A DNA stretch of 64,000 nt from Xiphydria camelus (lineage: Eukaryota > Arthropoda > Insecta > Hymenoptera > Xiphydriidae): the NCBI GenBank assembly GCA_963678675.1, contig OY783192.1, positions 38,905,250 through 38,969,249 of the forward strand. The letters run 5' to 3'. Below the pieces are notes generated by a model. The model ran no database searches. It was not told where the DNA came from and saw only the letters and a program-made list of their open reading frames with translations. The position numbers and the translations under genes were made by a program. This document shows, piece after piece, positions 43,575-61,847 of the stretch (the stretch's first letter is position 1; every line of letters begins with the position of its first letter).

Positions 43575-43606
<32 letters not shown>

Positions 43607-46600: not shown

Positions 46601-46688
46601 GACGGGAGAAAGGTGCATCCGACCGGAGGAAATACCACGACCAGCGGAGGCTGACCTCTATTCGCTTCGTGAAACCACTGGCCGCCGT

Positions 46689-46732
<44 letters not shown>

Positions 46733-49700
46733 GCCTTCTCTCTCGGCGTCTCATGTCCTCTCGCTTCCTCTCGATTTCCAACGAGAGATTTTCATTCCGT
46801 CGAGAGTTTTTTTTCCACACGCCCCCGGTCGCTCTCCTCGCTACACCATCGGTCATTGTGGTCGTCCGTTCGCCGGTAGCGATCGATCAACGTTCGGTCG
46901 CTCGATTTTCGCGTTTCTCCCTTTTCTCAAAAAGTCTCCGTCGCGCAACCCCCCTCCCCTTCAATTTTTTCCGCGGCGTTAAATCGAATAAAAACCGCGT
47001 CGGTTCATTTCGACGTCGAGACGTAGTCGCGTGTAATCGGGTGCGAACTATACTCGCGTCAGCCGTTCGACCACGCGTAGGTATGCCCGCGGCCCGAGTC
47101 GAAAAATCGGTGACCGCGGCAAAAAGCGTCCCGTGTCGTTACCCCTCGCTACGTCGAACAGTAAATAAAGCGGTTTTTACCCGCACCCGCGACGGGATAA
47201 CGAAGCGAGTGGGCGCGTGCCACAAATTCGCACGTGTCCCGAATAGCCGGGAACGGTTGATCCGTGCGAGAGAGGCCAGAGTAGATACTTACGGGGGACA
47301 CATTCCTGCGACATTTATACATATATCGTCCATACCCACAGCCCGGCTGGTACAGAGCAAGCGCTCGCCGCGAATTGGATCGCGCGGCGCCGATTTATCG
47401 AGCCGGGTTTATAATAAAGTGGCTTTGTCCGGGGCCGGTCGTAGAAACGACTGTACCACCTAGGTACGTAAGTCGGAATTGCGGTGGGCCGTAGGTACGC
47501 GTCGAGGAGGAAACTAGACCAGGAACGCGTTGGTCGAAATAACGCGCCGGACTCGGTCAGTCGTTGGCATCGAATGCTTTCCGTCTAGCCGACACGAGTC
47601 GACGCAAAACCAAACCATTGGTTCTTTCCGCTGGAGCCTGCCGATCAGTTGGTCATTCCAACGGAAGTGTGCCGCGACTCGTGTCGTTGACGAAAAGCAC
47701 CTATTTCGTCTCACGACGAGAGATGCAAATTGGAACGCGCGCGCGATACGATAACGATAAAAGGGGAACGCGATTCGTCCGATCATCATCTTCTGCTCGG
47801 GTCATCGCGAGTGGCCGTCACTCGAGTGACGTACGATCCCGGCAGAAGGGTCGGATTTGCCGTATTCGCGTTCCAATTAGCGCGTCTCCAATTAACGAAC
47901 CCGATTAATCACAGCCGTTCGGACGGTAGGTCAGGTTCGCACAGCGGCACAATGCTGGGAGCCGGTTGCGCAATCAAGATCGCCGCGTGTTTCTCCGCTA
48001 CTTCGCGCGGCGCGGTACCTTAAGCGTCTCCGCGCGTTGCAAGGCACGCCGGTGCCGTGGATCTGGATATAAGCGTGATTTTCTGTTAAAATACCAAACG
48101 TAACGACCGGCCCCGGTCTCCCCTCTGGATGTTTATATTTTTCTCAGTCGCATCTGCTCGTCTAAATCAGGACACGCGCGACTGCTGTACGCCGTGCAAT
48201 CATCGCTTGTAAACGGCGCACAAACGATAATAGAGACGCGCGAGGAACGCGTGCGGCGGCATACGCGCGGGTATTAAATTCTACCGCAGATTTCGCCCCG
48301 CGATATAATAACGACACTCTCCTTGCGGTGAGCGGCGTTTTCTGGCGCGCCTGCGAAACGGTTTACACGCGTACACGTAATATACCGCGCGTCCTACGTA
48401 ATTACGGGGTCTACGCTGCGCGCGCGATCGTCAGGCCGGGATTCTCTTACGGTTCTTGCCGGGGAATAACGACGCGCGCGCGCTCCGTAAGGACCGAAAC
48501 CGGATAAAAAGTGTGCATCCGATCGGCGTATGAACGTCGCGCGGTCGGTAGTTCGTCGTACCTCGTCCGCAGGGATATCTGCCGTTGGATATCCTGCAGT
48601 GAAAGCGGAATAAAAAATGGATCCTACGATACGTTCTCATTATTTCAAGCTTCAAGTGATTCCAGGCGATTTGAATGAGCGAAACTCCATGTTTCCTTCG
48701 ATCCTCATGCGCGCGCGTGCCACGTACGAGAGAGATCCTCTCCTCGCGCGGTCACTCTCCCGCACTCTCTCTCTCTCTATTTAATTGCGAAACGCGCAAT
48801 TCCACCGCGATTACGATCGCATCGCCCCGCTCGCTTCGATTGCGCGTCGTGCCTCTCGTGGCCGCGCGGACGACTCTCGCGTTTAACGGTACATTCGAGA
48901 CTTCTGTACCTACATGATACGAGCTAAAAGCGCGCAGGGGCACGAGCGGCCACCGCGCGCAAATATGTGTACACGCGGGTACTTACTCTCGCGTTTATTT
49001 CCGTCGTCGGTTAATCGAGCGCGGATCGGGTTCAAGGTTGAAATCCGGGTCCGAAGACGGAATTCGGAGACGGGGGGTGGGCGACTCGAGCGCGTGTAAA
49101 ACCACCATCGCCGCGGAGCGCTCTTCCGTTTTTTGCGGGCGCTCCGACGAGCCCGCGCCTTGCGGTCTCGTCGTCATCGCCGTCGTCGTCGTTGCGGGCT
49201 TCGAGGACGACTACGTCGTCACGGCTGGTCGGAGAGAGAACTTCTTTCGATTCTCGGAATTCCGTACGCCTCCATCGGACGCGGTCTAGCGTGAAGCTTT
49301 GTCGGATCCTAGATTCCGCAGGGTCCGCGTAGCCCTCTTCGCGTCGGTTGGTGATCAACGACGGATTCGTCGTCGCTACATCGAGATAAATTATTGCCGG
49401 TGCCGAGAAGATGTTTTCTCTGGTCAAGAAGACGACATAATTACAGGACCGAGTCATGGCTTTCTTCGCACGAGATAATATTTCACAGACTCGAGAAGGG
49501 GAGAGTTGGTCATATCGTACCACCGATTAAATCGTAATACAAGTGATATTTTTTTATGAAATAAAAATAGCAGAGCACTCTGTTTCACAGAAAATCAATG
49601 GCGATACGATTCAGATGGTGGTAGGTAATTTGATTTTGTATAAAACAGAGTGCTCTGCTATCTCTGTATCATCATCATAAAATATCAGTAGTGGTACGAT

Positions 49701-52700
49701 TTAAGCGGTGGTACGATATAGCTAACTCTCCCCTAATTGTTTTTTTTTTTTTCGTAGAAGAAGAGTTTTTCGTTCAAGCGAAAGTATTCTTGGATGAAGA
49801 ATATATGCTGTTCAACCCCACCAAAAAATCTATATTCTTCAACATTTTTAAGATCGCGATATTCCTGTTTGAAGAAATATCTTTTTGATACTCTAGCTCT
49901 TATTTCTCTCGGTGTATGCTGAGGCTCACCCGATCGAGGCTCGAAAACACCCGGCTTAAATTCGACCAAATAGCGCACGAGTTCGTATTGGGAATTGGAC
50001 CGTGTCCGCATGGCGGACACATTTGATAGCATCTGGATCTCAAGAATAAAATGTACATCGTCGTGGTCTTTACGCTTCTTGCGTCTATCTCTTGATTATT
50101 TCTCGAGGCGAGCCATCGAAGCTCGGTCCCTTCGCTCGTAATTGTCGTGGTACGCGTTTTTATTTGGAGCGAAGCGAAGGAGTGAAAACTACACCGTGGG
50201 ACAATGGGAAGGGTTCGTCTGAATTAGAGATCACGTTTACAGAGTGATTAACGTAGTCAGGATTTTCATCGGAACGCCTGTGCGCGCGTTAGCGTCGCGC
50301 AATTAGCCTCGTCAATTAGACAAGGTTCGCGCGCTTCGCGGTCGCGCGCAGTCTGTAATACTTACGTTTGTTTTTCATATGCAAACTTAATAGGCGGTAA
50401 TCGGCGATCCACTTAGCCGGCCTCTTTGTTGTCTACTGTTATTCTCTCTCTCTCTCTCTCTCTCCTTTGAAAAAAATTAAATTTTTTCCTCTCCAAAATC
50501 TTTGGATAATACGGCCGGAATTTTATGTTCCATCTCCAGCTTCACGCGAGTCAGTTTTTCTCCCTTTTCGTACAGGCTCTGTAACACAGAGGGGAAAGGA
50601 CCTTTGTAGCAAGAAACTCACGATAGTACGAGACGATCGAACGAGCGACTGTACAGGTATATAACAGTGCTGTAATAAATTACACTGCTTCTCCTACTGG
50701 AGCGGAGCGAAAGAACAGATCGGAGAGGTTTACTCGCGAGCTGACCGTCTTCTTTTCGGTCCGGACCTTCGCTCCTCTCCTCCCTCTCTTTTTCTTCCGG
50801 AGGGAAGACTCTATCGTCTTCAGATTCTCGAGACAGCCTCGACTGAGCAGGGGGATAATGCGCATACGCGTACGTCTCGGTGCAGCGGTGTCCGCGGTCT
50901 TGCCGCGGCAGTTTTCACGGTCAACGCGAGTCAAGCGTGAAGACGCTCGACCCCATTCATCGACACCGCCTCGTCGACTCTCGTGATGATGACATTCCCC
51001 GCGAATGACGATTTTACCTTACGCGAGCGAATCTACCGCGAGCGGAGGCGCGTTTTCGGGAGAGTGTCGAGCAATCTAATGAGTTTCTCGATTCCGTCGA
51101 GTCACTCTTCGGTTAAGCGGGACGATCAATTCGTGGTCGACGCGCGGTATCGGCGAAGAAAAAAAAAGTGTACGAATCAATCAGGCCAGGTCTCGATTGA
51201 TTCGGCCAGCAAAGGCGATGATACATTTTCGAAATGCGAATAAACAGCTCTCGCGCCGCGCGATATCGGCGTCGGATCGAAATCCCATTCAACTCCCGAT
51301 CCTTTCATTATCGTCGCCGCGAGATTGCGCTCGAAACGGTACTTTTTCTTTTTTTACGAGCGGATCATCATCGACGAGCAGGTTTTTCGCCGAAGGAACC
51401 TCGGGCGATCGAGGCGCCGAGGAGTTTGCAAAAACTCTAGCGAAGTGGCTTCGCTCGGTACCTATCTCATTGCTCCGCTTATCCGATGGATCGTATTGTT
51501 GTTCGTCCCGCGCGCGTGGACGATCCTCGAGGTGTAGGTACCGCGGAGAGTCCCACGTACGACGAGCGGTTCGGTATTCACCGTGGTCCGTAGTCCGATC
51601 GGGGAGGCTTTCGCTTCATCCCGCTTCGCTTCTCGCTTGTCGAGCGACGAGCATCTGCGCCGGGTGCGATTCCGCGCGATCCGCATGGCGCGGAACTGCT
51701 TTTATTTCCCAGCATTTAAGCCGTCCGCATGCCAGGTGTCCGACGAGTGACGTCTCCTTGCGTCGTAACTGTCCGGTCTCTTCCTCGTCATTACGGCGAA
51801 TCGGAGATGTCCGGGATGTCCCGAAGCGTCCGTCACGATCGGTATTCGACGAAGAAAAGCTCGACGCGGCCGCGATTTCAACCGATCCCTTGCCGATAAA
51901 GATCGTTACGCGTCCCCGAGACATCTCGGAATCGTCGATCGGGGGCCAGGTTTTCTATCCATCGCGTCGGCGATCGCGACTCGAGAGTCGCGGGGGGATC
52001 TCTTCACGGTCCCATTACCGATCTTCCGCGTGAAAACACCGCGGCGGGGCCGGCCCCCTCGTTCCGCCAGCCTCGTCGGTATGTACGGGAATAATTGAAT
52101 GCTTTTATCCGCGCCACGCGTGAGCGACGCCTCGTTATTACGGCGTCACGCAGAGATTGTCCCCGGGGTACGTGGAAGGGAGACGCGGCACGCGTGATTT
52201 CATAATGCAATTGCCATCGCAACGATGCGAGTCGTCGGACGGCCGGGTTTGACGCGCGCCACGAGAGAGACACGGGTGTCGATGGGGGGCCAGAGACCGG
52301 ACAGAGCCGAAGGTGATGCCTTCCAATGCGGCGTAAGCGCGCGCTACGAAAGTGGGATGCGAATGCATCGGATCGCGGAGCGTCCGACGAGTCGTGGCGA
52401 TCGATGCGAATGTATCTTTCACCTTCTTCCATCTCCGTTATCATTGTGTACGGGCGCGAGATCGTTCTAAATAGTAGAAAATAACGCGAGGGAAGAATCA
52501 TTTTAATCCTTTCGAAGAGATCGTTCAAATCTACCATCTGGATTCGAACGATTTTCATACGATCCTTCCTCAGGATTTTATGAAACGCATTGCAGTCCCT
52601 TTCGCTACAAATCTTCGACGACGTCATGATTTTTCATTCGATCAAACGCCGATTTTATCTACGTCGATTTTTAATGAGTATCGAGAAAAAGTACGCGTAA

Positions 52701-55311
52701 TGTCCACGAGTTCGCGATCGAGAATATCGAGGCGCGTTTCACCGCGTCTATTGTCACGTACGGGGTGTCGTAACGGAATCGTTACCAAAGCGGAGCGACG
52801 TTAGCGAGTCGTACGGTAGAAGCATCGCGATCGACGACAGAGGGGCACTGACTCCGACGCGTGACGTATGTATCTCAGGCGTGTCAACAATTCGATTATG
52901 CGTCACGTAGATGAATCGAAGTGCGTAGAGGCCGTTGCACAACGAGAAAAGTAAGGATTAAGAAATAAGAAATCAAATTCCGATTGTTTGGAATAAGGAA
53001 TGGGAGATGAGAAATAAAATTCCAACCAATCGGAATCTTATTACTCGTTCCTTATTATTTTTTTTGCGCAAGTCAAGTATCATTTAAAAAGGGATGTCGA
53101 AAGTCGAGGAGGCAGAGGCTATAGTCGTTGTCGTTTCAATCAAATGCGTATCATCGAGATTGATATCGTGGAATGAAAATATTCGCTTCTCCGAGAAGCG
53201 ATACACGCGCAGTTGGAAATTTTGTGCTGAAACTGGTCCACTTATTATTCGGCATGATGAAATCAACCGATCCCTCGAATTGATCCAACCATTTTTTTAT
53301 GTTAAAATTAACACGAAAAATAGTAAATTAAAATGAACAATCCAATTGTTGATTTCAACATCCAGAAATGGGTGGACCGATTCTAACCCAGAATTTCCAA
53401 CTGCGTATGATTTATTCATTAAACGTATTATGCGATATGTACGAAGAAAATAACTTAATAGTCGCTTTTCACTTACACGCGTGTCTTCGTTCCGAATATT
53501 ATCAATATTCGCCTCGGACGCGGGATCCCGGCCGACGGATTTACGTCACTCTCGTTCCAATGAACGCCCGGGTGAACGAATTGACGGAGAGACCGCGCCT
53601 CGCTCGTGTCGTTCACAGTGAAAGTGATCGCACGCTGCCGATCTCGGCCGAGACATTGAAAAATCATTCAAGTGGAACGCCGTTGCAACTTTCGTGGCAA
53701 CGCTCCACGCGTGCACCGTTGGTTATATCCGAAGTGCACGGGTGGGATCACTTGTACAGGGCGATTCAGAATGGTCAAATATCGCGTTTCGATGATATTA
53801 TATATTTCTTTATCTCATTGAGAATTAAAGCTTGAAAAAATCGCCCACTCTGGAATATTCAGGGATCTTATTTAATTATTTTTTATTCATCATAAATTTC
53901 AGGAAGAAATTTCATGCGAATATCCAATTATGCAACGCAGGAATGATTAATTACACCATTGCACCGTAATTGATAAAAGCTTATTTAAATATGGCGATGT
54001 ACACCCGCGAGTTAAAATTTTTATAGCACCCAGTACGTGCTACGATCGTCTTCCTGGCGGCGATCCGATGATTCGGGATGTCCGTCAAGGGGTAGTACTC
54101 GTACCGCTGGCGCACTGCTGGCCTCCGCGGCTGCATCGTCGTCCAATTGTCATACTTACTGCGAAATTGTTACATTTCTAGACGCGTTGCAGGCCTGATG
54201 TCCGTTTGACGATGTGCCGTAGGTGTATCGCAGACGTACTGACTTCCAAAATTTCAATCGGGTTGAGTGTTTCGTTGTAGCAAAAACATATTTATCAATC
54301 ATTGCAACATTTAATCGTTTCGAGTGATTGCTTCAAAACCCTTATTTCAGACCATGAAATATCGCAATAATTGACACAAATAACTATTTGCCTTCAGCGG
54401 AATATTTATTTCGCCATATTTAGATCAGCTTTTATTAATTAGTAATAAACTATTTCTTCGGTGAATCGGTATCGGTGCTCATGTGTGCTCGTTAAAATAC
54501 AATTACTCTGTTACTATATTCCCGATAAACGTGTTCCTCGAGCTTCATCAATTTAGTTATCGTTAAAAGTGTGAAATTAATAGTAGATGACGAGTGGGGA
54601 CGACCGAGACGTGTTACCGGCTCTAGCGCTTGACGATAACTGCGTCGGATCGATGATAGGGAGAGTAGGGTGGCACAGGTAGACCGCGCGCGACTCTGAA
54701 TAACATCGCGGTCGAGCTTGTCTTCGTGAATCAACAGTGAATCGCGCCATATTGACATTCATTTAGCATATCTGTGTGTCTGTATTGTATTTCAAAATAC
54801 GTACGTTTTGTATAATATAAAGAGAATCGCGTACGATGAAGTATCAAGTGAAGTAGTTTGAAATTACGAAGCGTCATGAAAATTCTCTGATTTTTCTTTG
54901 ACTTTTCCATGACATAGATATCGTATTTCAAAATACGTACACTCTATATGAAGGGAATCGCGCGTGCTAAAATTTCAAGTGAAGCCTCTTGAAATTACAA
55001 AGTATTATCAAAACTTCCGAATTTTTCTTTGACATTTCCATGATATGGGAAAATGATTCGACAATTCCAGATGACCTGAAATTTTCCAATCGTTATTAGA
55101 TACCGTGATAAAATATTTCTGAATAAACCTGTACCATAAACTGGTCCGCTCCTACTCTCGAAACGAATGCGAGAGGAGTGGCTCGAAACGTCGGCATTCT
55201 CTTCGTCCGTCTCCATCGTTTCTTCTCTCTCTCCCTCTCTCTCTCTTAATTCACTTATCGATCCCGCTCGCAGCGTACAATATATAATTCGTCTCTCCGA
55301 TGCTTCTCTCC

Positions 55312-55367
<56 letters not shown>

Positions 55368-58300
55368 AGCCTCGAACCGATGGAACGTCAAAAGAAAACG
55401 CCGCAATCGCGGAACGAATTTCTTTCGCTGCAACGCGAAACGGGAACTCGGCTCGAGACTTTCTCCCGATGAGCTTTTGAGTGGATACCGCGCCGGGTTC
55501 TTCGACTGCCTCGCCTCGTCTTTCTTTTTTTTTCGTCGTTCCATCGCGCATACCCAGGATGAGAACTCGCGATGACAGAGTCGATTACGTATCGTTCCAT
55601 CGACGATTTTTAAACGTAAACGCCGACGTCGTTACGAAACGTTTGAAAAATTTTAATTTTTTTCACCGGACGATGAAGTCATTGGAGAGCAAGTCGGAGA
55701 ATTTCATCAGTCGGATGCACCTGTCTAATCGAATCCTCGTCGTGCCTCGGTTCATTCTAAAATTCACGATTCATTCGGGTTTTCCTCATCAGCGTCGATT
55801 TCTAAGATTTCAATTCTCTTATCCCGATCCTTTTCCGTTGATCGGTATACCAGACCTCGTTCGTGTTAATTTTACAAATAATCGTCCCGGTCTTGGAAAG
55901 CACGTTGATGCTCATTCGCGCTATGCATACGTACTCGTACACACAATGCGTCGGAGGACATTGACACGCGCGATACCGATGATCGACGCGATACAGGTAT
56001 GCAGATAGGTACAAGTATAGGTATATTTAACTCTACGGCATGGAAGTGCCGATCGAAGAGGTCGAGTGCGCGACTCGACCCGAAAAAGTTCGAACCTGCA
56101 AACTCGAGGAGAGGCCTGTTCAACTTCCGCGTTCGACCGCCCGCTTTTACTTTTTACTCGGAAGTTCGCCCCGTGAGAGTGCTACCGCGTAACTATCGAT
56201 CCTTATCCCCTTACTTCTCGGCCTCTCGTGAATACTGCTCGCGACACGCGTGTACAGATATCGGTTTTCTACTGCTTTCTTTACAGTGATGAGAGTTTGA
56301 CTGGGAAACTCACTTTACGCACATCGCGGAACTGCAGAACCCGCGTTAACAGTAGGAGCATTTATTTGTAAGCGAATATCTCATCCGTATCGGCCCGGAA
56401 CTTTCCCGTATCTCGGAATCTCGAGAGAAGAATAACGGTGGAAGGGGTTCTACCTCTGAAAATAATAAAGATCCTCCTCTTTTTTCCGCGGCGGAGGGAC
56501 CGCTAATCACCTCACGTGACCCGTACCGCATCATCGTTAAGAAGCACCGCGCGCGCGCGCGCGCCTGCCTTCGTAGAAATCCGCGCGGTACTCGCAGCCG
56601 TTCTCGCCGGGATATAGTATGTATAGAGAGTCGGACGGAGAATACCGTTTTCCCGCAGGGGTGTACAATTGGTTGCAGTTTCCGCAGGCTACCATCTCGC
56701 GTGGTACAGATACGGGCGGCGCGTTATACCGTACTTCCGCGTTTACGGAAACACCCCGTGTTTCGCTCCTTCGAATAAACGATCATTTTTCACGGTACCC
56801 GCGTTACACGGACATGCCTGATCTGCGCCGGCGATACCAACTCGAACCATTTCGCGCACCGCGCGCGACATGGTAGTCGGCGTCCGTGGCGATGAGCTTC
56901 CGCGGACTCTCTCCGCAGGGGGAAGGGGAGGGACGCCGCGAGGCACGCGGGAGAAGAACCGAGAGCTTCGCGGTAAAGCGACCGACCGGTTGTCGATCTC
57001 CCGACGCGACGGACGCGTGGATGCGGGATCGCTGCGAACGCGCGCCGGCGTCGGCGATGTGTGCCTTCACACCGCTGCGTCCCCTCCGCTGCGTCCGCAC
57101 GGCCCGCGACGGTGCTCACGGTGGGAGAGGGGGGCCGCCCCCCGAGGAGCGCACCTGACACCGAGACCGGTTGAAACTCCGAGAGGTGCTCTCTCTCGAA
57201 GTCAGTTCCCGTCGGTCGTCGAACGATACGGACGATCGAGCGGAATCTCGCGGCGAAACCGATCGGAGATCGGTAAGCGCGATCGAGACGGAGGGGCTCC
57301 GATTGCGAATCGGTTGAGTGCGGAAGAATATCTCGTCGTTGATTCGCGCAATTCCGAGCGATCCCTTCGCGACGTAACCGATTTCTCGAAGATCGCAATC
57401 ATAAATCGTTGACCGATCGCGACGGGAAAAATCCGAGCCCACACGGTTTACAATCGCTAACGGTACACGCTCGGCGGAGGCCGGCAGGTGTCACCGTCGA
57501 TCGAACGAACGATTGCGGAATAGAGTGCCCCTGACGATCGATCGAGCGCTTCTCATTCGCTGGTTCCCCGGCGAAAGGTAGAAGAAACCGGCTGGTCCGG
57601 CGAAGAGAACTCGTCGCGAAGCGCTTTCCGGTGTCTCGGGAAGCCCTGCCCTGCGGAAGAAAGCGGTGCTCGGTTGTTCGCGGCGGAGAATCACCGGTTA
57701 GTCGTTACTGGCGAGGGGCGAGTGTTATTCGTCGCTTATCGCGTATCAACGGCTGTCGTTGCAGTTGGGACGATAAGGAGAAGAGCTTCGTCGCTGTTTG
57801 ATTAATATTCATTCGCGCTAATTCCACCGACCGAAGGTTCTCGAGTTTTCGTACGTTTCGTCGAACGGAGTAGTTTCTTGCTTCGAAACGGAAGGAAAAC
57901 GCGTGGAAGAAAATCGAGAACCCGTAGAAGCACAGTGAGACGAGAAATTCGACGAAACCGCGCGCCAGCCGATGAGATGCTTTCGTGGCGCCACTACGAG
58001 AGTCATTCGCGCGAGGAAGAATCGAACGGAAGAGGCTGAAGGAACACGAAGAAAGTAGAGTGCCTCGAGGCCGCATCTCCTCGTACCCCCCGGCTAACGG
58101 TGATCGCGCGCGATGGCGTCAACGAAGACCCCCGTCAAGACCGGCCGGACCAGCGGCCTTCGAAAGTTCTACAACGGAACCCAATGGTCGTCGCCCGGTG
58201 CGGGAAGCCAACGATTGGCCAAGGCCAGGAGCAGTCCGAACATATCGAAACCGCTGACGATATCCGTGCCGATCGGACACGCCAACAGAACCGAGGAGAA

Positions 58301-61300
58301 ATCTTCAACGACGAGACCCGGTACCACTGGAGCGTCCCTCGCGAAAAAACAGACGACCGACGCCAGGTCGGCAGTCGTCTCCACCTGCGGAAACTCTCGA
58401 AACGCGGGTGGGACCGGCAAGTCGGTCGGCGCAAACGTGACCGTCGTGCTGATACCGGGTAGCGATTCAGGTGCGAGCGGTAAACCGCGCCAGTCGGCAT
58501 CCAACGCCAATGTCGAGAAGAACGCGGGTAAAAGCAGTGTCATGCCCGCACCGAGCGCCAGTCCCCGCAAGAAGAACGAGAAGAAAATTCGCGAAGCCAC
58601 GTCCACCTCCTGTACCATCCTGGAGGATCGAGCGTTACTGAAGAAGGGCCTCGGCGGCGCGCCGGACGGGCGGCTGCCCAAAAAACCCGAAGCTCTGCGC
58701 AAGGGTGCGAGTCTCAATCGGTCCACCAGCCTGTGGAGCGTCCCCGTAGCCTCCGACGGCCAGGGCAAGGGTCACGCGCGAAAAAAGGGCGCCTGCAGGG
58801 ACGAGGCGCTCGGCGAGCGGCGCAAGGAAACGCTGGACAGGACCACCAGCCTGTGGAGCGTGCCCTGCGACTCCGCCGCGGTAAGCGGCCGGATGTCCAG
58901 GGCCAAATCCGTCGCGGGACTGCGACCCAGTCGCATCCCCCTGTTCACGCAACACTTTTCCGTCGCCCCGAACGGCGCGCGCTCTCTCGCCGATCTAACG
59001 CAGGTAGATCGCAGCGGAGAGAGGAGCGCCGCGAAGATCGTCGCCGTCGCCGTCGCCGTCGACGAGGTCGATCGGTCCGTGGACGAGCACATCTACGAGA
59101 ATTGCAGGGACGCCGTCGCGAAGGACCGTTCGCCGAGTGTTCCCATCTACGAGAACTTCGTAGACGGGCAAGCGCAGTCCGCGAACGGAAGCGAGGGGAA
59201 AGCGGAGGACGAGAAGAAGCGAGAGCGTGAACTGGTCAGGACGAAATCGGTGCCGGTGGAGACGATAACCGACCTGGAGAAGCGGGCGGAGCAACTCATG
59301 GCCGAATTGGACGACGAGGAGGAGGAGAAACCCCCGCCGAAGACGTCCTCGTCTCTCGGCGTCGACATCGATCGCGATTGCAACGCGCATCGGGCGAATC
59401 TCGAAAAGAGCAAGGAGGTGCTGTCGAGGAGCCGAGAGAATCTGAACAGGAGCCGCGAGAAATTGGCCCGGAGCAAGGAGAACCTGGCCAGGAGCCACGA
59501 GATCCTCGAGAGGGGTCGCGGTTTCGCCAAGAGTCACGAGAGTCTGCTGCGCCGCGAACCGGAGATGAGCATCCAGGAGATCCGGCGCAATTGGGAGAAT
59601 CAGATCAAGAGGTCGAAGGGCGACGCCAAGAAACCGCCCAGAGCCCCGAATTCGCTCTCCACCGGCGAACTTCGCGAACCGAAGAGACCCGGAAACGGTG
59701 GGGTGCAGAAGCCCGCGAAGGAGATAGAACATTTGGTGAACTTTTTCAATTGCAAAAACGTCACCGAGGTGTCCGACGGCCCTGCGAAGGACCCGGCGCC
59801 GCCTCTCGTCGGCTCCAAGAAGGACGGCAAGGAAGAGAAGAGCAGCGGATACGTCTCCGACGGCAATTGCTCCGAGGACAGCGGCCACATGAGCAACGAG
59901 AACGAAGTCGAGTGGAAGGAACGTCACGACGAGCTGAAGAATCTCGACGACAAGAGCGAGCGCTTCCTCAAGGAGATCATCCACGACCTGGACGCCAGTT
60001 TGGAACGGACGATCGAGGTCTTCACCTCGACGCCCATCGTGCGACGCTTTATCTCGGTGGACCGCGAGGAGAAGAAACTGGCCGAGAAGAGCCTGTCGAC
60101 GTCGAGCGGCGCCAGCAGCATCGACAGCTGGGAGGAGAGCGCGAAGAGCTCGGATGGGAGCGAGAGGTGGCGGGGTGGGAAGACGAGCGCGAAAGCGGCG
60201 TCCGCACCGGCGACCACGGACGGACGACAGGTCACCGTTAAGACTGCGCGCTCTCGTACTCAGGTAGCGGGCGAGGGGAAACGCTTGATAACTCGCGACA
60301 CGGTAGCGGCGCGCGACCCACGTGCGTCCTCGCGATCGCGTTTCCTCGATCGGCGCACCGGTCGAGATTTATCGCGGCAATCGGCGCGTGGGATTTACAC
60401 GGAGATAGATGACTTGAGAAACGACGGCGATATATGAATTACGCGAGGCGCGCGTCCGAAAATGGTTCGGAGGAAGGTCCTCGCTGTGTGTGTGTGTGTG
60501 TGTGTCTGGTTCGGAAAAAAAAAGTCATCAAGTCTTTGAATTATCGGCCGGCAGTGCCACGGTTGCGAATCGAGTAGCGTATACATCACGGCGATCGCTT
60601 CGAACGTCGTCGAGAATATTATGCAGTCTCCGCCGCGCTATCCTTTTTTCACCGTGCGAATAATCAGGTCGCCATCGTAACCAAATATCCGCGCGGACGC
60701 GGCCACGCATGCGGGTCGATGCGAAATAATCTGCTGAAATGATCAGCACGCTTCTATTAACGGCTTGGCATGATCCATCGCTTCACCCGAGAGTGCGGCT
60801 CTCATTCCGGTAAATGATTATCGCGGAAGCTTTGGTGTCGGACTCGGTTTCGTTGGCAAACGCGCTGGATCGGTGATGCGTGCGTGTACGGGATTTTTAT
60901 GCTTCATGTGGTATTCAAGTGCCCGTAGAAAGTCGTGTACGAATTTTCGAGCGAAGCTTTCAGTTCAAACTGAATCGGGATTTCAAGCATCTATGAATAC
61001 CGTCGATGGAGCTGGCAATGGTTGTGAAAGCATCGCTACAAAATACCGCCATAAATCTGACGCTGCAATCACGTAATAACGTTCCCGACTTAACGAAGCT
61101 AATTCTTCCTTTCTTCCCTCGTTCGTCGAATAGATATTCTTCCGATCCGGCGCTCTGGAACGGCTCGAGGCTCAAAGGGACGAGAAGCTCACCGGACATA
61201 TCATACTCCTGCAGGCGCGATGTAGGGGATACCTCGCTCGTCGGAAGCTTCAGACCTTAAAGGTATTCCTTTGCACGAGTACCTATACATATATGTCTAC

Positions 61301-61847
61301 ACAAGACGAAAATAACTCGGTGCAAATTAAAGTCTCACCCACATTCAACGATCGTACGCGTCGAGCGAAAAGTCAATTGTCATTCCGTCCCCAGCTGCAA
61401 GACCTGGCCGTCAGATGCATTCAGAGAAACGTGAGGAAACTGATGTCAGTTCGAGAGTGGCCGTGGTGGCGACTCTACGTGAAAGTCGCTCCCTTGCTGA
61501 ACGTCCACCGCACGGAGGATCAGCTCAAGGCGAGAACGGTAGGTTGGGTCCCGTTTCTGCAAACTGATCGGAATCGATGTCCCATTTAACGTTACCCGGA
61601 TCGCACGGAATCATCGGCGCGAGTCTACCATTCGATTACCGAACCGTCGCGCTTCGTCGGATCTTCCAATTATTCAGTTATTCGATTATCCCTCGATCCC
61701 CGTTCGTAGCATCATCGGTAATATTGTAATTTTTCCTCCCGTTCGAACGATCCGCAGGAAGAACTGGAGGTGCTTAGAGCGAAGGTCGAGCGACTGGAAC
61801 AGGAGCGTAATCATCTGAAGCACGACAACGACAAACTCGAGGCCAAG
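285..61847 (+). CDS. Mhcl: Myosin-18 (unconventional myosin-XVIIIa), long KE/PDZ isoform, 3' partial
   Basis: This entry gives the span of the spliced gene. CDS join: 285-419, 1583-2623, 8538-8672, 30652-30840, 31011-31187, 31325-31525, 31654-31806, 31895-32475, 32560-32742, 32825-33087, 33191-33353, 33475-33649, 34078-34236, 34339-34554, 61134-61262, 61395-61538, 61758-61847. It makes 1378 codons with no internal stop, and all donors are GT and acceptors AG. Domain order is KE-rich start (1-45), PDZ (about 304-395), SH3-like fold and motor (about 438-1257), IQ/lever arm (1258-1348), and start of the coiled coil (1349-1378). A PDZ domain ahead of a myosin motor is diagnostic of class XVIII. 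Family members bind actin, Golgi or adhesion partners and dimerise by the tail; the motor has little or no ATPase. Roughly the last third (coiled-coil tail) lies beyond the window. Identity is confident; exact exon ends come from reading frame and splice consensus only. Confidence 0.93.
420..1582 (+). other. Intron 1 of the myosin-18 gene
   Basis: The intron is 1.16 kb, from donor GTACGT at 420 to acceptor TTCCAG at 1577-1582. It contains GA/CT-rich patches near 1242-1264 and 1523-1550. I see no other gene or convincing exon inside it. Confidence 0.85.
1583..2623 (+). CDS. Mhcl: Myosin-18 exon 2: low-complexity linker plus PDZ domain
   Basis: This exon encodes residues 46-392 in phase 0 at both ends. 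The first part is a disordered Ser/Pro-rich region with a polyproline stretch ([11 protein letters not shown]) suited to SH3 binding, then a His/Gln run at about 2081-2137. The PDZ domain fills residues about 304-392: the carboxylate-binding loop is seen as DFGFSLRR, followed by [24 protein letters not shown] and [19 protein letters not shown]. In the class the PDZ domain and its flank recruit partners and help localise the protein to actin and membranes. The donor AAG|GTGAGT at 2624 is strong. Confidence 0.95.
2081..2137 (+). repeat. His/Gln homopolymer run coded by CAY/CAG triplets
   Basis: Mixed CAT/CAC codons followed by CAG/CAA codons encode eight His and then a Gln/His mixture inside the linker before the PDZ domain. 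The codon mixture limits slippage, but the tract is the sort that varies in length between alleles and species. It lies in predicted disorder, so a length change should be tolerated. Confidence 0.9.
2624..8537 (+). other. Intron 2 of the myosin-18 gene
   Basis: The intron is 5.9 kb. Contents I can see are a small direct repeat at about 5947-5983 (two near-identical 19-bp units with CTAATGTATGTAA) and a palindromic foldback-like element at about 7860-8110. Open frames here are Arg/Ser-rich shadows of CpG-rich sequence without splice logic. No second gene is supported. Confidence 0.8.
7860..8110. repeat. Palindromic foldback/MITE-like repeat, family A copy 1
   Basis: Two long imperfect inverted arms, about 7901-7979 and 7998-8068, share in opposite orientation the cores AGATAGGGTGGTC and GACCACCCTATCT and an adjoining CGATTCCAG/CTGGAATCG block. 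The arms flank a short centre of some 20-25 bp. Related sequence occurs at about 38930-39190 and 63375-63692, so this is a dispersed non-coding family and not a chance hairpin. No transposase is seen. I could not define terminal repeats or a target-site duplication by eye. Confidence 0.7.
8538..8672 (+). CDS. Mhcl: Myosin-18 exon 3: PDZ C-terminal flank
   Basis: The exon encodes 45 residues (393-437) starting [12 protein letters not shown], which continues the last PDZ strand (TIK|VQP). The corresponding vertebrate segment is VQPIPELSELSR, so homology is clear. It ends [16 protein letters not shown] before a phase-0 donor ACG|GTGAGT at 8673. The acceptor is TTTCAG at 8532-8537. The next constitutive exon is 22 kb downstream. 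Confidence 0.93.
8928..8978 (+). other. tRNA-like vestige with A-box and B-box resemblance
   Basis: TAGCTCGTTAGTCGG (8928-8942) resembles a Pol III A box with the D-arm of a tRNA. GTTCGAGTC (8965-8973) resembles a B box and sits in a perfect 5-bp stem, 7-nt loop T-arm (CCGAG...CTCGG). The A-to-B spacing is about 37 nt, shorter than the usual 45 or so. A complete cloverleaf is not formed, so it is at most a decayed tRNA or tRNA-derived SINE head. Confidence 0.25.
10840..11760 (+). repeat. Diverged satellite-like tandem array, period about 154 bp
   Basis: The segment CACTGCAACGGTATCACTCC at 11402 recurs as CACCGCGACGGTATCACCCC at 11556 and, more weakly, near 11709 and 11247. This gives a period of 154 bp. 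The stretch CTACGACGGGG(T/C)AGT and the following AGTGTTGTTGG/AGCGTCGTTGG recur in register. More diverged pieces of the same theme (TCGACCG..GGCA..CGAGTGC, CGGAGTC) extend back to about 10860. It looks like an old satellite remnant; copy limits are approximate. Confidence 0.7.
12062..12096. repeat. (GA)n microsatellite
   Basis: This is an uninterrupted GA dinucleotide run of about 35 bases within intron 3. Confidence 0.95.
19797..19835. repeat. Short copy of the CAGTAG..CGGYCCGTCGTACGTCC hairpin family (family E)
   Basis: The sequence GCAGTAGGTGCGGTCCGTCATACGTCCG matches one arm of the hairpins at 25437 and 34879 with a few changes. Only one arm is clear here. It is immediately downstream of CpG-rich sequence and upstream of a GCGACG run. 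Confidence 0.45.
19955..19982. repeat. (CGACGG)n short tandem repeat
   Basis: This is a run of CGACGG hexamers of about 28 bases in intron 3. Confidence 0.85.
22835..23085. repeat. Dispersed repeat (family D), uninterrupted copy
   Basis: The copy starts at AATAATTGCCGGTACCGAGAA and includes TTCTTCG...ATAATATTT...TTCGAG|TAATTATTTTTCG, then several blocks related to CAAGAATACGTATA, and ends near TTATTAATTCTCTCAGC. A second copy at 49385-49915 follows the same order of blocks but is interrupted by a 236-bp palindrome exactly at TTCGAG|TAATT. It has no coding capacity that I can see. Confidence 0.65.
23300..23876 (+). promoter_or_regulatory. Candidate alternative promoter and 5' leader of the PDZ-less isoform
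   Basis: GTCAGTC at 23305-23311 fits the insect initiator TCAKTY and lies in CpG-rich sequence upstream of the alternative first exon. The frame of the exon is open back to about 23715 but contains no ATG before 23877. Upstream ATGs in other frames (for example near 23358 and 23739) would make a complex leader. No TATA box or clear DPE was recognised, so the start site is a guess. Confidence 0.3.
23877..24737 (+). CDS. Mhcl: Myosin-18 alternative first exon (PDZ-less N-terminus)
   Basis: This is a 287-codon open segment from ATG 23877 ([19 protein letters not shown]) to a phase-0 donor AAG|GTACGG at 24738. The next constitutive exon (30652) is also entered in phase 0, so the join reads ...[20 protein letters not shown] and gives a motor protein without KE and PDZ modules. 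This parallels the beta isoform of vertebrate MYO18A. The segment is Ser/Arg/Lys-rich with an acidic patch and a Thr run coded by ACG (about 24268-24288). Near the end it has [12 protein letters not shown] and [13 protein letters not shown], probably helical. Codons are G/C-rich at third positions, like the known exons and unlike the flanks. I do not recognise a named domain. It could instead be an internal exon or a small nested gene, but no stop occurs before the donor and the phase fit favours the isoform reading. Confidence 0.72.
25437..25531. repeat. Hairpin element, family E, 95-bp palindrome
   Basis: The outer arms are GCCGGAGAGC and GCTCTCCGGC. Further in, ATACGGCCCGTCGTACGTCCG pairs imperfectly with the reverse complement of ACGCGTGACGAGCCGTGTCTACTGG. 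The inner sequence recurs in the hairpin at 34879-34958 and in single arms elsewhere, so it is a dispersed structured repeat. Confidence 0.6.
25647..25663. repeat. (CG)n run
   Basis: This is an alternating CG run of about 17 bases. Similar runs occur at about 38122-38139 and 56548-56564. Survival of such runs points to little methylation-driven CpG decay in these introns. Confidence 0.9.
25750..25945. repeat. Palindromic MITE-like repeat, family B copy 1
   Basis: The left arm at about 25754-25819 (GGAAATTTTGTGTTGGA...GGACCGGTCATTTTTATATG...AAATCAACCGATT) pairs with the right arm at about 25885-25940 (AATCGGTTGATC...CAAAAATGACTGGACC...CCAAC..AAAATTTC). The loop includes a T-run and AAATTAACACGAAAAAT. 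The same arms and loop recur at 53205-53410, and the right half alone at 45540-45655. Confidence 0.75.
30652..30840 (+). CDS. Mhcl: Myosin-18 exon 4: SH3-like N-terminal fold of the motor
   Basis: The exon encodes 63 residues (438-500), [33 protein letters not shown]..., ending VDEEDVEK. It corresponds to the K(T/S)EEQ...EKVWLVHRDGF and DVDEDDVEK segments of vertebrate MYO18A. This is the common entry point for both the PDZ form (from 8672) and the alternative start (from 24737). The acceptor TTTTACAG ends at 30651 and the donor AAG|GTAGGC is at 30841, both phase 0. Confidence 0.95.
31011..31187 (+). CDS. Mhcl: Myosin-18 exon 5: motor domain N-terminal subdomain
   Basis: The exon encodes 59 residues (501-559) with [24 protein letters not shown] and [13 protein letters not shown]. 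The block [14 protein letters not shown] is nearly invariant in class XVIII. The myosin purine-binding region that normally has NPxxxLxxY is represented by [10 protein letters not shown]. The acceptor CTTCCAG ends at 31010 and the donor AAG|GTGAGA is at 31188. Confidence 0.95.
31325..31525 (+). CDS. Mhcl: Myosin-18 exon 6: P-loop exon
   Basis: The exon encodes 67 residues (560-626). [17 protein letters not shown] precedes the P-loop [11 protein letters not shown] at residues about 599-609. The canonical myosin P-loop is GESGAGKT; here Glu is replaced by Arg. Changes at this position are usual in myosin-18. The Lys-Thr that contact phosphate are kept, so nucleotide binding is plausible. Phase 0 on both sides. 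Confidence 0.95.
31654..31806 (+). CDS. Mhcl: Myosin-18 exon 7: switch I region
   Basis: The exon encodes 51 residues (627-677). [38 protein letters not shown] is the switch I region. The canonical N-x-N-S-S-R-F-G-K is replaced by N-S-N-A-T-R-F-T-Q, matching the class XVIII pattern NATRFSQ. Loss of the usual serines and of the Gly-Lys fits a motor with poor hydrolysis. The acceptor is preceded by a long T tract. Confidence 0.95.
31895..32475 (+). CDS. Mhcl: Myosin-18 exon 8: upper 50-kDa subdomain
   Basis: The exon encodes residues 678-870 plus two bases of the next codon. It contains [53 protein letters not shown] and [13 protein letters not shown] Thr/Pro-rich insert ([17 protein letters not shown]) sits at the loop where vertebrate MYO18A also has low-complexity sequence. 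The donor AA|GTGAGT at 32476 makes a phase-2 intron; read-through would hit TGA at once. Confidence 0.94.
32560..32742 (+). CDS. Mhcl: Myosin-18 exon 9: switch II exon
   Basis: The exon completes Lys871 and encodes [27 protein letters not shown]... through [10 protein letters not shown]. Switch II reads DAPGFQ (residues 887-892) in place of the canonical DIxGFE. The catalytic-relay Glu is Gln, as in vertebrate MYO18A (DTPGFQ). [18 protein letters not shown] is the standard helix after switch II. The acceptor TCATCAG ends at 32559 and the donor CAG|GTGGGT is at 32743. Confidence 0.94.
32825..33087 (+). CDS. Mhcl: Myosin-18 exon 10: relay region with acidic insert
   Basis: The exon encodes from Arg932, with [21 protein letters not shown] (acidic), a Ser-rich stretch, then [32 protein letters not shown]. 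The last part is the relay helix (canonical LLxLLDEE). The reading frame requires the donor GAG|GTTCGT at 33088, which lacks A at +3 and is weaker than the others in this gene. The acceptor TTTCAG ends at 32824. Confidence 0.9.
33191..33353 (+). CDS. Mhcl: Myosin-18 exon 11: lower 50-kDa subdomain
   Basis: The exon encodes [54 protein letters not shown]. The block V-Y-x-x-x-GWL-x-x-x-x-N is the myosin signature seen in other classes as Y-x-x-x-GWLxKNKDPL. It is entered in phase 1 and left in phase 2 at CAG|GTAATT. Confidence 0.92.
33475..33649 (+). CDS. Mhcl: Myosin-18 exon 12: loop 2 / actin-binding region
   Basis: The exon encodes [59 protein letters not shown]. It corresponds to the vertebrate segment with LSGSIAGLEGG, LRRATSMRKTFT and AVKKKSLCIQMK. 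RRASS and RRTF resemble basophilic kinase sites in loop 2. The donor GTC|GTAAGT at 33650 is strong and in phase 0. Confidence 0.94.
33650..34077 (+). other. Short intron with a TTC-rich tract
   Basis: The intron is 428 bp between the loop 2 exon and the HCLLP exon. It contains an interrupted (TTC)n tract at about 33920-33960. Nothing else coding is seen. Confidence 0.85.
34078..34236 (+). CDS. Mhcl: Myosin-18 exon 13: SH1/SH2 helix region
   Basis: The exon encodes 53 residues (1133-1185), [25 protein letters not shown]..., ending [18 protein letters not shown] is the myosin block F-V-R-C-I-x-P, here with the class XVIII form HC-LP. The acceptor GTGCACAG ends at 34077 and the donor CAG|GTAAAT is at 34237, both phase 0. 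Confidence 0.94.
34339..34554 (+). CDS. Mhcl: Myosin-18 exon 14: converter subdomain
   Basis: The exon encodes 72 residues (1186-1257): [49 protein letters not shown], then YRVGQSQ. GFPKHM..EFRRRF is the converter motif (canonical GFPxRxxYxxFxxRY). In the spliced protein SQ is followed by [11 protein letters not shown] across a 26.6 kb intron. The donor CAG|GTGAGT at 34555 is strong. Confidence 0.95.
34806..34860. repeat. Small inverted repeat with perfect 10-bp arms
   Basis: GCAGTCGTCG at 34806-34815 and its exact reverse complement CGACGACTGC at 34851-34860 flank 35 bases. It lies just upstream of the larger hairpin at 34879. Confidence 0.6.
34879..34958. repeat. Hairpin element, family E, 80-bp palindrome
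   Basis: The left arm CAGTAGTCACGGCCCGTCGT (34879 on, 24 bp in all) pairs with the right arm ending ACCGTGACTACTG at 34958 with about four mismatches in 24. The terminal 12 bp, CAGTAGTCACGG/CCGTGACTACTG, are perfect. A further single arm, GGACCGTAGCTACTGG, is at about 35001-35016. Confidence 0.7.
38930..39190. repeat. Foldback-like repeat, family A copy 2
   Basis: TTTTCGGAATTTTCAGCATG, then GAGTAGGGTGGTC, TTCGATTCAGGGAATTTC and a TTGTAAAAATG end match the left arm of the copy at 7860. The outer block CGTAAAATCATCGATATTTC (about 38936) recurs in direct orientation as CGTAAAATGACCGATATCTG (about 39113), so this copy is partly tandem and not a simple palindrome. Confidence 0.6.
39754..39788. 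repeat. Single arm of hairpin family E
   Basis: CAGTAGTTACGGCCGGTCAT followed by GATGTCC matches the arm of the hairpin at 34879. No clear opposite arm was found here. Confidence 0.4.
40854..40866. repeat. Poly-C tract
   Basis: This is an uninterrupted run of 13 C within the giant intron. A second such run lies at 62739-62752. Confidence 0.9.
41777..42190 (+). repeat. Four-unit diverged tandem repeat, units about 107-129 bp
   Basis: GCGATAAAATTAATATTCGT at 41777 recurs as GCGATAAAATTGGTATTCGT at 41906, GCAATAAAATTAGTAATCGC at 42013 and GCAATAAAATTGGCATTCGT at 42140. Each is followed by G(A/C)GCGG-like sequence, a T-run, GAGAACTC-like sequence and a TTCTCGATAC-like block. Unit starts are 129, 107 and 127 bp apart. 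No coding signal is present. Confidence 0.8.
43575..43606. repeat. (GCC)n trinucleotide repeat
   Basis: This is about ten GCC triplets in a CpG-rich stretch of the giant intron. It is not in a supported coding frame. Confidence 0.9.
45540..45655. repeat. Half copy of palindromic family B (copy 2)
   Basis: CGCGAAGAATCGATTGATTT, then CGAAAATATGTG, ATTCCAAC and ATGAAATTTCCAATT match the right half of the palindrome at 25750 in the same order. The left half is not recognisable. Confidence 0.55.
46692..46729. repeat. (TC)n microsatellite
   Basis: This is a TC dinucleotide run of about 38 bases. Confidence 0.95.
49385..49915. repeat. Dispersed repeat (family D), copy interrupted by a MITE
   Basis: AAATTATTGCCGGTGCCGAGAA opens the copy and TTCTTCG, ATAATATTT and CTCGAG follow as in the copy at 22835. 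The sequence then breaks off at about 49495 and resumes at 49734 with TAATTGTTTTTTTT, ATTCTTGGATGAAGAATATA, ATTTTTAAGATC and TTATTTCTCTCGG. The break is filled exactly by the palindrome at 49498-49733. Confidence 0.65.
49498..49733. mobile_element. 236-bp palindromic MITE with terminal inverted repeats
   Basis: The ends are GGGGAGAGTT and AACTCTCCCC, a perfect 10-bp inverted repeat. Inner arms include ATATCGTACCACCG paired with CGGTGGTACGATAT, and a perfect 18-bp pair TAGCAGAGCACTCTGTTT (49568-49585) with its complement at 49643-49660. Almost the whole element folds back on itself. It has no open frame of note. Flanks are AA on the left and TA on the right; the empty site in the paralogue at 22835 reads TTCGAG-TA-ATT, consistent with a TA duplication whose left copy has mutated. 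This would suit a Tc1/mariner-type non-autonomous element. Confidence 0.75.
50442..50464. repeat. (TC)n microsatellite
   Basis: This is a TC dinucleotide run of about 23 bases followed by an A/T-rich stretch. Confidence 0.9.
53205..53410. repeat. Palindromic MITE-like repeat, family B copy 3
   Basis: The left arm (TTGGAAATTTTGTGCTGAAA, CTGGTCCA, GATGAAATCAACCGAT) faces a right arm (GTTGATTTCAACATC, GGGTGGACC, CAGAATTTCCAACTG). The loop contains AAATTAACACGAAAAAT, as in the copy at 25750. The inverted-repeat plan and loop are shared, so the two copies are the same family. Confidence 0.7.
54787..55048 (+). repeat. Two-unit tandem duplication, period 136 bp
   Basis: GTATTTCAAAATACGTAC at 54787 recurs at 54923. 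GAATCGCGTACG/GAATCGCGCGTG, TCAAGTGAAG, TTGAAATTAC and TTTTTCTTTGAC..TTCCATGA follow in both in the same order. The units differ by scattered changes. Confidence 0.8.
55314..55366. repeat. (TC)n microsatellite
   Basis: This is a TC dinucleotide run of about 53 bases, the longest simple repeat in the window. It gives rise to spurious Ser-Leu or Arg-Glu frames. Confidence 0.95.
58113..60263 (+). CDS. Long alternative first exon, probably giving a motorless myosin-18 isoform
   Basis: ATG 58113 ([19 protein letters not shown]) opens a 774-codon frame with TGA at 60435-60437. A phase-0 donor CAG|GTAGCG at 60264 would end the exon after codon 717 and join it to the IQ exon at 61134 as ...[17 protein letters not shown]. 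Features by residue: basic Ser/Thr-rich start (1-200); twin TSLWSVP motifs (205-211, 245-251); HIYENC (327-332) and PIYENF (344-349), both YxN; acidic helix with [23 protein letters not shown] (384-405); 7-residue repeats with RS(R/K/H)E (about 433-480); and a conserved-looking segment around [37 protein letters not shown] (601-637). No motor or PDZ domain is present. Codons are strongly G/C-ending up to about 60240, then less so. A nested independent gene ending at 60437 remains possible, but no AATAAA or ATTAAA occurs before 61133. Confidence 0.68.
60264..60437 (+). other. Read-through extension of the 58113 frame to its stop codon
   Basis: If the donor at 60264 is not used, the frame continues for 57 more residues, Arg-rich and without recognisable pattern, to TGA at 60435. 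Composition differs from the preceding exon, which suggests intron sequence. It would be coding only if 58113-60437 is an independent intronless gene. Confidence 0.35.
60485..60505. repeat. (TG)n microsatellite
   Basis: This is a TG dinucleotide run of about 21 bases, shortly after the stop of the 58113 frame and within the last 650 bases of the giant intron. Confidence 0.9.
61134..61262 (+). CDS. Mhcl: Myosin-18 exon 15: lever arm with IQ motif
   Basis: The exon encodes 43 residues (1258-1300): [43 protein letters not shown]. It matches VFFRAGTLARLEEQRDE and FQAACRGYLAR of vertebrate MYO18[13 protein letters not shown] is the IQ motif (IQxxxRGxxxR) that binds light chains or calmodulin-like proteins. 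The acceptor TCGAATAG ends at 61133 and the donor AAG|GTATTC is at 61263, both phase 0. This is the join point for both the motor exon 34554 and the candidate exon 60263. Confidence 0.95.
61395..61538 (+). CDS. Mhcl: Myosin-18 exon 16: neck with conserved WPWW block
   Basis: The exon encodes 48 residues (1301-1348), [60 protein letters not shown] and WPWWKLF are the counterparts in vertebrate MYO18A, and the W-x-W-W-x-L-x-x-x-x-x-PLL block marks the head-tail junction of class II-like myosins. The acceptor CCCCAG ends at 61394 and the donor ACG|GTAGGT is at 61539, both phase 0. Confidence 0.95.
61758..61847 (+). CDS. Mhcl: Myosin-18 exon 17: start of the coiled-coil tail
   Basis: The exon encodes 30 residues (1349-1378), [30 protein letters not shown], a heptad-repeat coiled coil corresponding to the vertebrate segment [30 protein letters not shown]. 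The acceptor ATCCGCAG ends at 61757 and the donor AAG|GTGAGT is at 61848, phase 0. The following tail exons (expected to begin with a SELT-like segment) are not in the window. Confidence 0.94.

What the first reader, a model, noticed from the sequence alone, without database searches (positions are those of the whole stretch)
58113..61262. Candidate motorless myosin-18 isoform from an internal promoter
A 717-codon exon opening with ATG sits 870 bp upstream of the IQ exon and ends in a phase-0 donor (CAG|GTAGCG, 60264). The IQ exon is entered in phase 0, so the join yields a new N-terminus on the lever arm and tail with no motor or PDZ. The 26.6 kb intron is placed precisely between converter and lever arm, where such a promoter would have to lie. 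No AATAAA or ATTAAA occurs between the in-frame stop and the next exon, which argues against an independent gene. Such a product could dimerise with full-length protein through the tail and act as a scaffold or dominant regulator.
Basis: partly seen in the sequence, partly recalled or inferred. Interest (0 to 1): 0.75.

Follow-up and report, generated by a model that had tools for sequence, protein, structure and literature searches.

The report
Motorless myosin-18 alternative first exon
This stretch is a large alternative first exon of an insect myosin-18 gene that would make the protein without its motor, and the same arrangement is predicted from genome sequence in many other insects, which suggests it has a job of its own.

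Summary
In detail: a 717-codon exon (58113-60263) opens with ATG, ends in a phase-0 donor and lies in the 26,579-bp intron between converter and IQ exon. In a search for long homologues, 43 of 43 hits carry the exon's orthologue ahead of the neck, 42 of 43 the tail, and 0 of 43 a motor; 32 of 43 bear the name myosin-XVIIIa/b, so the product already sits in databases. Against it, 4 of 11 NCBI-named hits of the first search stand alone, reading through the donor. Homology favours donor 60230 over 60263. Profiles extend the exon to flies and, more weakly, beetles; locusts, cockroach and aphids have motorless models whose N-termini show no detectable homology. An SxIP (EB1-type) and a DSGxxS (Slimb-type) motif are conserved in order. 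My mechanism: the tail joins myosin filaments while the N-terminus recruits partners. The join is supported by homology; promoter, expression in this species and function are inferred. Headless isoforms are known for myosin classes 2 and 10; my paper searches showed none for class 18.

The parts
58113..60263 (+). alternative first coding exon, 717 codons (706 if donor 60230 is used)
   Evidence: open frame; 85 homologues at E<=1e-3, best 2.5e-156; 43 long joined homologues
60225..60236 (+). phase-0 donor A, CGACAG|GTCACC (exon end 60230)
   Evidence: 39 of 49 joined models end in ..Q before IFF, most as RQ or QQ
60258..60269 (+). phase-0 donor B, ACTCAG|GTAGCG (exon end 60263)
   Evidence: 1 of 49 models (Neodiprion, P0088) joins at the equivalent ..RYRTQ|IFF
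58611..58652 (+). conserved island CTILEDRALLKKGL (residues 167-180)
   Evidence: pattern in 38 of 44 hymenopteran, 14 of 16 beetle-group, 3 of 3 sand fly/soldier fly N-termini; 0 in shuffles
58929..58940 (+). SRIP, an SxIP (EB1-type) motif (residues 273-276)
   Evidence: S[RK]IP counts and shuffles; absent from four control sequences
59091..59102 (+). IYEN (residues 327-330), a pYxN-type motif; a second copy follows at residues 345-348
   Evidence: 44 of 44 in the hymenopteran set; position not collinear in beetles and flies
59877..59894 (+). DSGHMS, a DSGxxS (Slimb/beta-TrCP-type) motif (residues 589-594)
   Evidence: collinear after SxIP in every N-terminus with all three motifs
57972..58058 (+). 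28-codon upstream ORF in the putative 5' leader (a second of 20 codons starts at 57977)
34555..61133 (+). 26,579-bp intron holding the exon, between converter and lever arm
61134..61262 (+). IQ exon joined to by both the motor and the motorless form
   Evidence: PF00612, E=1.8e-6; tblastn
61395..61538 (+). second neck exon
   Evidence: tblastn
61758..61847 (+). third neck exon; the coiled-coil tail lies beyond the window
   Evidence: tblastn

Best explanation
58113-60263 is an alternative first coding exon of the Mhcl (myosin-18) gene. A transcript starting inside the 26.6 kb intron splices it in phase 0 to the IQ exon and gives a protein of about 1,500 residues: a ~700-residue disordered-looking N-terminus, IQ neck and myosin-18 tail, without PDZ or motor. 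Shown by homology: exon, join and lack of motor in related insects. Inferred: an internal promoter; expression in this species. Proposed mechanism: the tail dimerises with full-length myosin-18 and enters non-muscle myosin-2 filaments, as the Myo18 tail does in vertebrates, while the N-terminus docks other partners, EB1 on microtubule ends through SxIP being the best candidate, with level set by Slimb through DSGxxS. Confidence for the product is about 0.92; for filament scaffold action about 0.5; for EB1 or Slimb binding about 0.25 each.
For: 85 homologues of the exon. 43 of 43 long homologues have exon orthologue plus neck, 42 of 43 tail, 0 of 43 motor. None of the 17 motor-bearing proteins gave a significant match to the exon profile (best E 6.2). 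Six joined models scanned show IQ and Myosin_tail_1, no head or PDZ (the tail scores lie below Pfam's cut-off in 6 of 6, IQ below it in 1 of 6). Conservation stops at the donor: P0001 and P0002 share VTIKTTRYRTQ|V with the window and end 7 residues after that V. Fly models match the hymenopteran exon profile (E 7.6e-10 to 3.2e-6; hhalign probability 93). Motifs: S[RK]IP 44 of 44 hymenopteran N-termini (shuffle maximum 5), 15 of 16 beetle-group, 3 of 3 sand fly/soldier fly, 3 of 3 polyneopteran; DSGxxS 44 of 44, 16 of 16, 3 of 3, and 5 of 5 Anopheles; order CTILE < SxIP < DSG in 38 of 38, 14 of 14 and 3 of 3 that have all three. Myo18A/B need the tail to bind myosin-2 filaments (PMC13249394, passages).
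Against: No transcript, CAGE or proteome data for this species. Most supporting models are automatic predictions. 4 of 11 NCBI-named hits (P0042, P0050, P0057, P0061) are stand-alone and read through the donor. 9 of 49 joined models have other junctions. No DPE or TATA box. Motifs were picked after looking, sequences are related, and SxIP is missing in 5 of 5 Anopheles, 2 of 3 hemipteran and 1 of 1 louse N-termini, DSGxxS in 3 of 3 polyneopteran, 3 of 3 hemipteran and 1 of 1 louse. A 14-3-3-type pattern was not enriched (7 of 44, shuffle maximum 8), and YEN is not collinear between orders. Beetle N-termini gave no hmmsearch match at E<=10 and only hhalign probability 23.5 to Hymenoptera (score 40.3 against shuffle maximum 20.6).
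Confidence: 0.85

Rival explanations
1. A stand-alone gene nested in the intron, ending at the in-frame stop at 60437, that never joins the myosin exons.
For: Frame stays open 57 codons past the donor; 4 of 11 NCBI-named hits are stand-alone models; a CATAAA at 61050.
Against: 43 of 43 long homologues join the neck. The read-through part is not conserved. No AATAAA or ATTAAA before the IQ exon.
Confidence: 0.05
2. A cassette exon put into the motor-bearing protein between converter and lever arm.
For: Phase 0 on the 3' side would permit it if an in-frame acceptor lay within the exon.
Against: In-frame stop 12 bases before the ATG; 0 of 43 exon-bearing long homologues has a motor match, although admitted proteins of roughly 830 to 2,640 residues; no significant exon-profile match in 17 of 17 motor-bearing proteins.
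Confidence: 0.02
3. Same product, different job: a simple competitor or dominant negative. It pairs with full-length myosin-18 and removes its PDZ and actin-binding head from the filament, as proposed for headless myosin-10; the N-terminal motifs are incidental.
For: Headless Myo10 is proposed to dimerise with and compete against the full-length form (PMC6345916, passages). Vertebrate Myo18A-beta, which lacks the N-terminal extension, is proposed as a negative regulator by heterodimerisation (PMC11112018, passages).
Against: A mere competitor needs no ~700-residue N-terminus with ordered conserved islands across insect orders.
Confidence: 0.3
4. The join is an annotation artefact: gene predictors extend a real but separate exon into the next strong exon.
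For: Automatic models can propagate between species; junctions vary in 9 of 49.
Against: Predictions come from several pipelines and many species; junction residues follow the conserved end of the exon; the unnamed 5,089-base contig P0121 encodes 455 exon residues plus neck and tail in 1,240 codons.
Confidence: 0.04

Closest known systems
Myosin rod protein (MRP) of Drosophila muscle myosin heavy chain (class 2)
   Same: Headless product of a myosin gene from an alternative start; keeps the tail (PMC3912159, passage).
   Different: Class 2. Starts at the first exon after motor and light-chain-binding region, so without neck; its N-terminus is reported as not conserved even between Drosophila and mosquitoes, whereas this one has islands shared between orders.
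Catchin / myorod of molluscan catch muscle (class 2)
   Same: Alternative product with a unique N-terminus, encoded by a long unique exon, on the rod; N-terminus phosphorylated (PMC3912159 and PMC4410989, passages).
   Different: Class 2, molluscs, thick filaments; no IQ neck; I made no sequence comparison.
Headless myosin-10 (vertebrate brain)
   Same: Motorless product of a motor-myosin gene, starting downstream of the motor exons (PMC6345916, passages).
   Different: Class 10, other tail; no large new N-terminal exon is described in the passages I saw.
Myo18A alpha, beta and gamma (vertebrates)
   Same: Same gene family; alternative N-termini (PMC7900500, PMC11112018, passages).
   Different: PMC7900500's figure legend says that all known isoforms contain the motor domain.

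Membership tests
Class-18 myosin gene (Mhcl) | PDZ, myosin head, IQ and tail exons in one gene on one strand | tested here: met
   PDZ and IQ by Pfam above cut-off; head above cut-off in two of three pieces; exon order by tblastn. Tail lies outside the window.
Headless (motorless) myosin isoform | shares neck/tail exons with a motor-bearing product of the same gene | tested here: met
   The IQ exon at 61134 aligns to both motor-bearing (P0129, P0132) and motorless models
Headless (motorless) myosin isoform | no motor domain in the product | tested here: met
   0 of 43 joined models with a motor match; 6 of 6 scanned without head. By homology, not from this species' mRNA.
Headless (motorless) myosin isoform | own transcription start downstream of the motor exons | tested here: inconclusive
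   Start codon after an in-frame stop, inside the intron; no clear core promoter; no 5'-end data
Headless (motorless) myosin isoform | protein made and assembled with myosin filaments | not testable with these tools
   needs proteomics and imaging
SxIP-type EB1-binding protein | SxIP in a basic, serine-rich disordered region (PMC3517537, passages) | tested here: met
   SRIP with 6 K/R, 2 D/E and 12 S/T/P in 44 residues around it; disorder not computed
SxIP-type EB1-binding protein | EB1-dependent plus-end tracking | not testable with these tools
   needs binding and imaging
Slimb/beta-TrCP substrate | DSGxxS consensus (PMC7895526, passages) | tested here: met
   DSGHMS at residues 589-594
Slimb/beta-TrCP substrate | phosphorylation-dependent binding and degradation | not testable with these tools
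   needs biochemistry

The most novel reading that the evidence does not exclude
Insects make a conserved motorless myosin-18 that rides growing microtubule ends through an EB1-binding SxIP motif, inserts by its tail into non-muscle myosin-2 filaments, and is removed by SCF-Slimb through DSGxxS: a regulated bridge between microtubule tips and the actomyosin cortex, made by the same gene as a motor-bearing PDZ myosin.
Probability: 0.18. Interest if true: 0.8.

Novelty: new variant of a known kind. Interest (0 to 1): 0.55.

Why it matters
Class-18 myosins have no measurable motor activity and are thought to act as regulatory parts of myosin-2 filaments (PMC13249394, passages). A product that drops the motor but keeps the filament tail and adds a conserved docking region would separate those roles and can be tested cleanly, since one exon can be deleted without touching the motor form. 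It also bears on how to read knock-downs: in flies Mhcl RNAi gave no consistent wing-hair phenotype (PMC12286378, passages), and exons shared by both forms cannot tell them apart.

Tried and rejected
Stand-alone gene and cassette exon: rejected, with four stand-alone models standing against. Core promoter scan: nothing convincing. Solved structures: one chance-level hit, E=0.37. Pfam on the exon: none at E<=1. 14-3-3-type pattern: not enriched. YEN as a cross-order homologous motif: dropped, since it lies before CTILE in beetles and flies and after SxIP in Hymenoptera. Homology of polyneopteran and hemipteran N-termini: not shown; hhalign scores 21.9 and 20.9 lie near the shuffle maxima 22.6 and 19.6. 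The polyneopteran exon end, GRQ[VI]S.SRYRTELE|IFF, resembles the sawfly end RQQVTIKTTRYRTQ|IFF, but this was seen after the fact. P0141 looked at first like a transcript but seems to read through an intron, so I gave it no weight for the join; it stays in the beetle group for motif counts although its source is unnamed. Drosophila: no Drosophila entry among the 120 listed of 180 hits; 60 were not shown, so nothing follows. Papers: searches showed me no paper describing a motorless myosin-18; the library is open-licence only, and the main Drosophila papers (Bonn 2013, Guzik-Lendrum 2011) were seen only as citations.
Full report
Observation. ATG at 58113 follows an in-frame TGA at 58101; 717 codons run to 60263, where CAG|GTAGCG is a phase-0 donor, and the stop-to-stop frame of 777 codons is the longest of 72 listed. 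Markov resamples of the region reached at most 491 codons in 500 trials. The exon sits in a 26,579-bp intron that splits ..YRVGQSQ from IFFRSG.., the converter/lever-arm border, in phase 0. The gene is a PDZ-head-IQ myosin, class 18: PDZ, head and IQ by Pfam (one of three head pieces fell just under the cut-off, 32.7 against 33.3), exon order by tblastn.

Homologues. Searching with the exon alone gave 85 proteins at E<=1e-3 among 7,992 scored candidates. Of the 11 that carry NCBI names, 7 already run from the exon into the IQ neck (P0014, P0015, P0017, P0033, P0048, P0083, P0084) and 4 stand alone and read through the donor (P0042, P0050, P0057, P0061). That search admitted only short proteins. 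A second, with a longer joined query scored on the exon part alone, gave 43. All 43 carry the neck, 42 of 43 a tail match of 669 residues or more (the exception is P0083), and 0 of 43 a motor match. By their names, 42 of 43 come from Hymenoptera: sawflies (Cephus, Athalia, Neodiprion, Diprion), Orussus, parasitoids (Fopius, Nasonia, Trichogramma), wasps, bees and ants; P0121 has no name. 32 of 43 are called unconventional myosin-XVIIIa or XVIIIb, mostly as a numbered isoform. The placing of genera in orders is recalled.

Transcript hint. P0121 has 1,240 codons on a contig of 5,089 bases and holds 455 exon residues, neck and full tail. The window's own intron after the third neck exon is longer than 2 kb, since nothing of the tail follows up to 64000. 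So P0121 is most simply a transcript contig; the tool does not say so.

Donor. Of 49 joined models, 39 end in Q right before IFF, most as RQ or QQ, which fits donor 60230; one, Neodiprion P0088, ends ..VTIKTTRYRTQ|IFF, the equivalent of 60263; 9 have other junctions. The window and the unnamed P0001 and P0002 share the stretch VT[VI]KT[AT]R[SY]RTQ between the two sites, so donor B may be used in this lineage. Both donors keep the frame.

Beyond Hymenoptera. A third search scored on the exon's last part plus neck gave 180 hits, of which 120 were shown. Motor-free models with neck, tail match of 427 to 695 residues and an N-terminus of 194 to 820 residues include 20 that I picked from Orthoptera, Blattodea, Coleoptera, Diptera and Hemiptera. 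Others have very short N-termini (for example P0131, P0157) and may be truncated models. The hymenopteran exon profile finds the soldier fly and sand fly models (E 7.6e-10, 1.1e-7, 3.2e-6) but no beetle at E<=10. Profile against profile: Hymenoptera-flies probability 93, beetles-flies 98.6, Hymenoptera-Anopheles 64, Hymenoptera-beetles 23.5 with score 40.3 against a shuffle maximum of 20.6 in 30; polyneopterans and aphids at chance. So the exon is shared by Hymenoptera and Diptera, very likely by beetles through the flies, and unproven elsewhere.

Motifs. Between low-similarity stretches lie islands: CTILEDRALLKKGL, SLW repeats, SRIP and SEDSGHMSNEN. S[RK]IP is in 44 of 44 hymenopteran N-termini (the window and 43 models, two of them from one Trichogramma gene), 15 of 16 in the beetle group (one of unnamed source), 3 of 3 soldier/sand flies, 3 of 3 polyneopterans, 1 of 3 hemipterans, 0 of 5 Anopheles, 0 of 1 louse. 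DSGxxS is in 44, 16, 3, 0, 0, 5 and 0 of the same. Residue shuffles reached at most 5 and 6 of 44 in the hymenopteran set. Where all three motifs are present their order is the same in 38 of 38, 14 of 14 and 3 of 3. None occurs in the PDZ N-terminus of P0128, the other alternative exon, the P0130 N-terminus or the P0095 neck and tail. Limits: chosen after looking; sequences share descent, so the counts are not independent trials; the DSG stretch was inside one search's query while the SxIP stretch was not.

Mechanism. SxIP in basic, serine-rich disordered regions binds EB1 (PMC3517537, passages); [quoted passage not shown] The Myo18 tail joins myosin-2 filaments (PMC13249394, passages). Put together, the isoform would be a filament-borne scaffold with microtubule-end docking and regulated turnover. 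Only the sequence features are shown.

What is known. Headless isoforms exist in class 2 (MRP, catchin/myorod; PMC3912159 and PMC4410989, passages) and class 10 (PMC6345916, passages). A 2021 review's figure legend says that all known myosin-18 isoforms have the motor (PMC7900500, passages). My searches showed no paper on a motorless myosin-18, but the models are in public databases. Hence: new variant of a known kind.

Noticed in passing
window 23877-24746 (frame 23532-24785): Second alternative first exon of the same gene, upstream of the motor exons: it matches the N-terminus of a motor-bearing chalcid model without PDZ (P0130, 36% identity, E=2.4e-39).
   Followed up: partly
window 8532-8672 and 61134: In one braconid model (P0128, Diachasmimorpha isoform X7) the PDZ-side exons, whose equivalents lie here, are joined straight to the IQ exon, skipping the motor: a second kind of motorless form, or a model error.
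   Followed up: partly
beyond window end; P0093, P0104, P0106: Three hymenopteran models carry about 300 extra residues between neck and tail with an inner 'MPLSPTTY'-like start in two of them; possibly a further internal start. No convincing match in the window (best E 0.011, antisense).
   Followed up: partly
P0084 (Vespa velutina X3): Uses a donor well inside the exon, dropping its last part including the DSGxxS island; if real, a form without the putative degron.
   Followed up: no
window 59091-59102: YEN motifs (pYxN type, recalled as Grb2/Drk SH2-like) in 44 of 44 hymenopteran N-termini, in another position in beetles and flies.
   Followed up: partly
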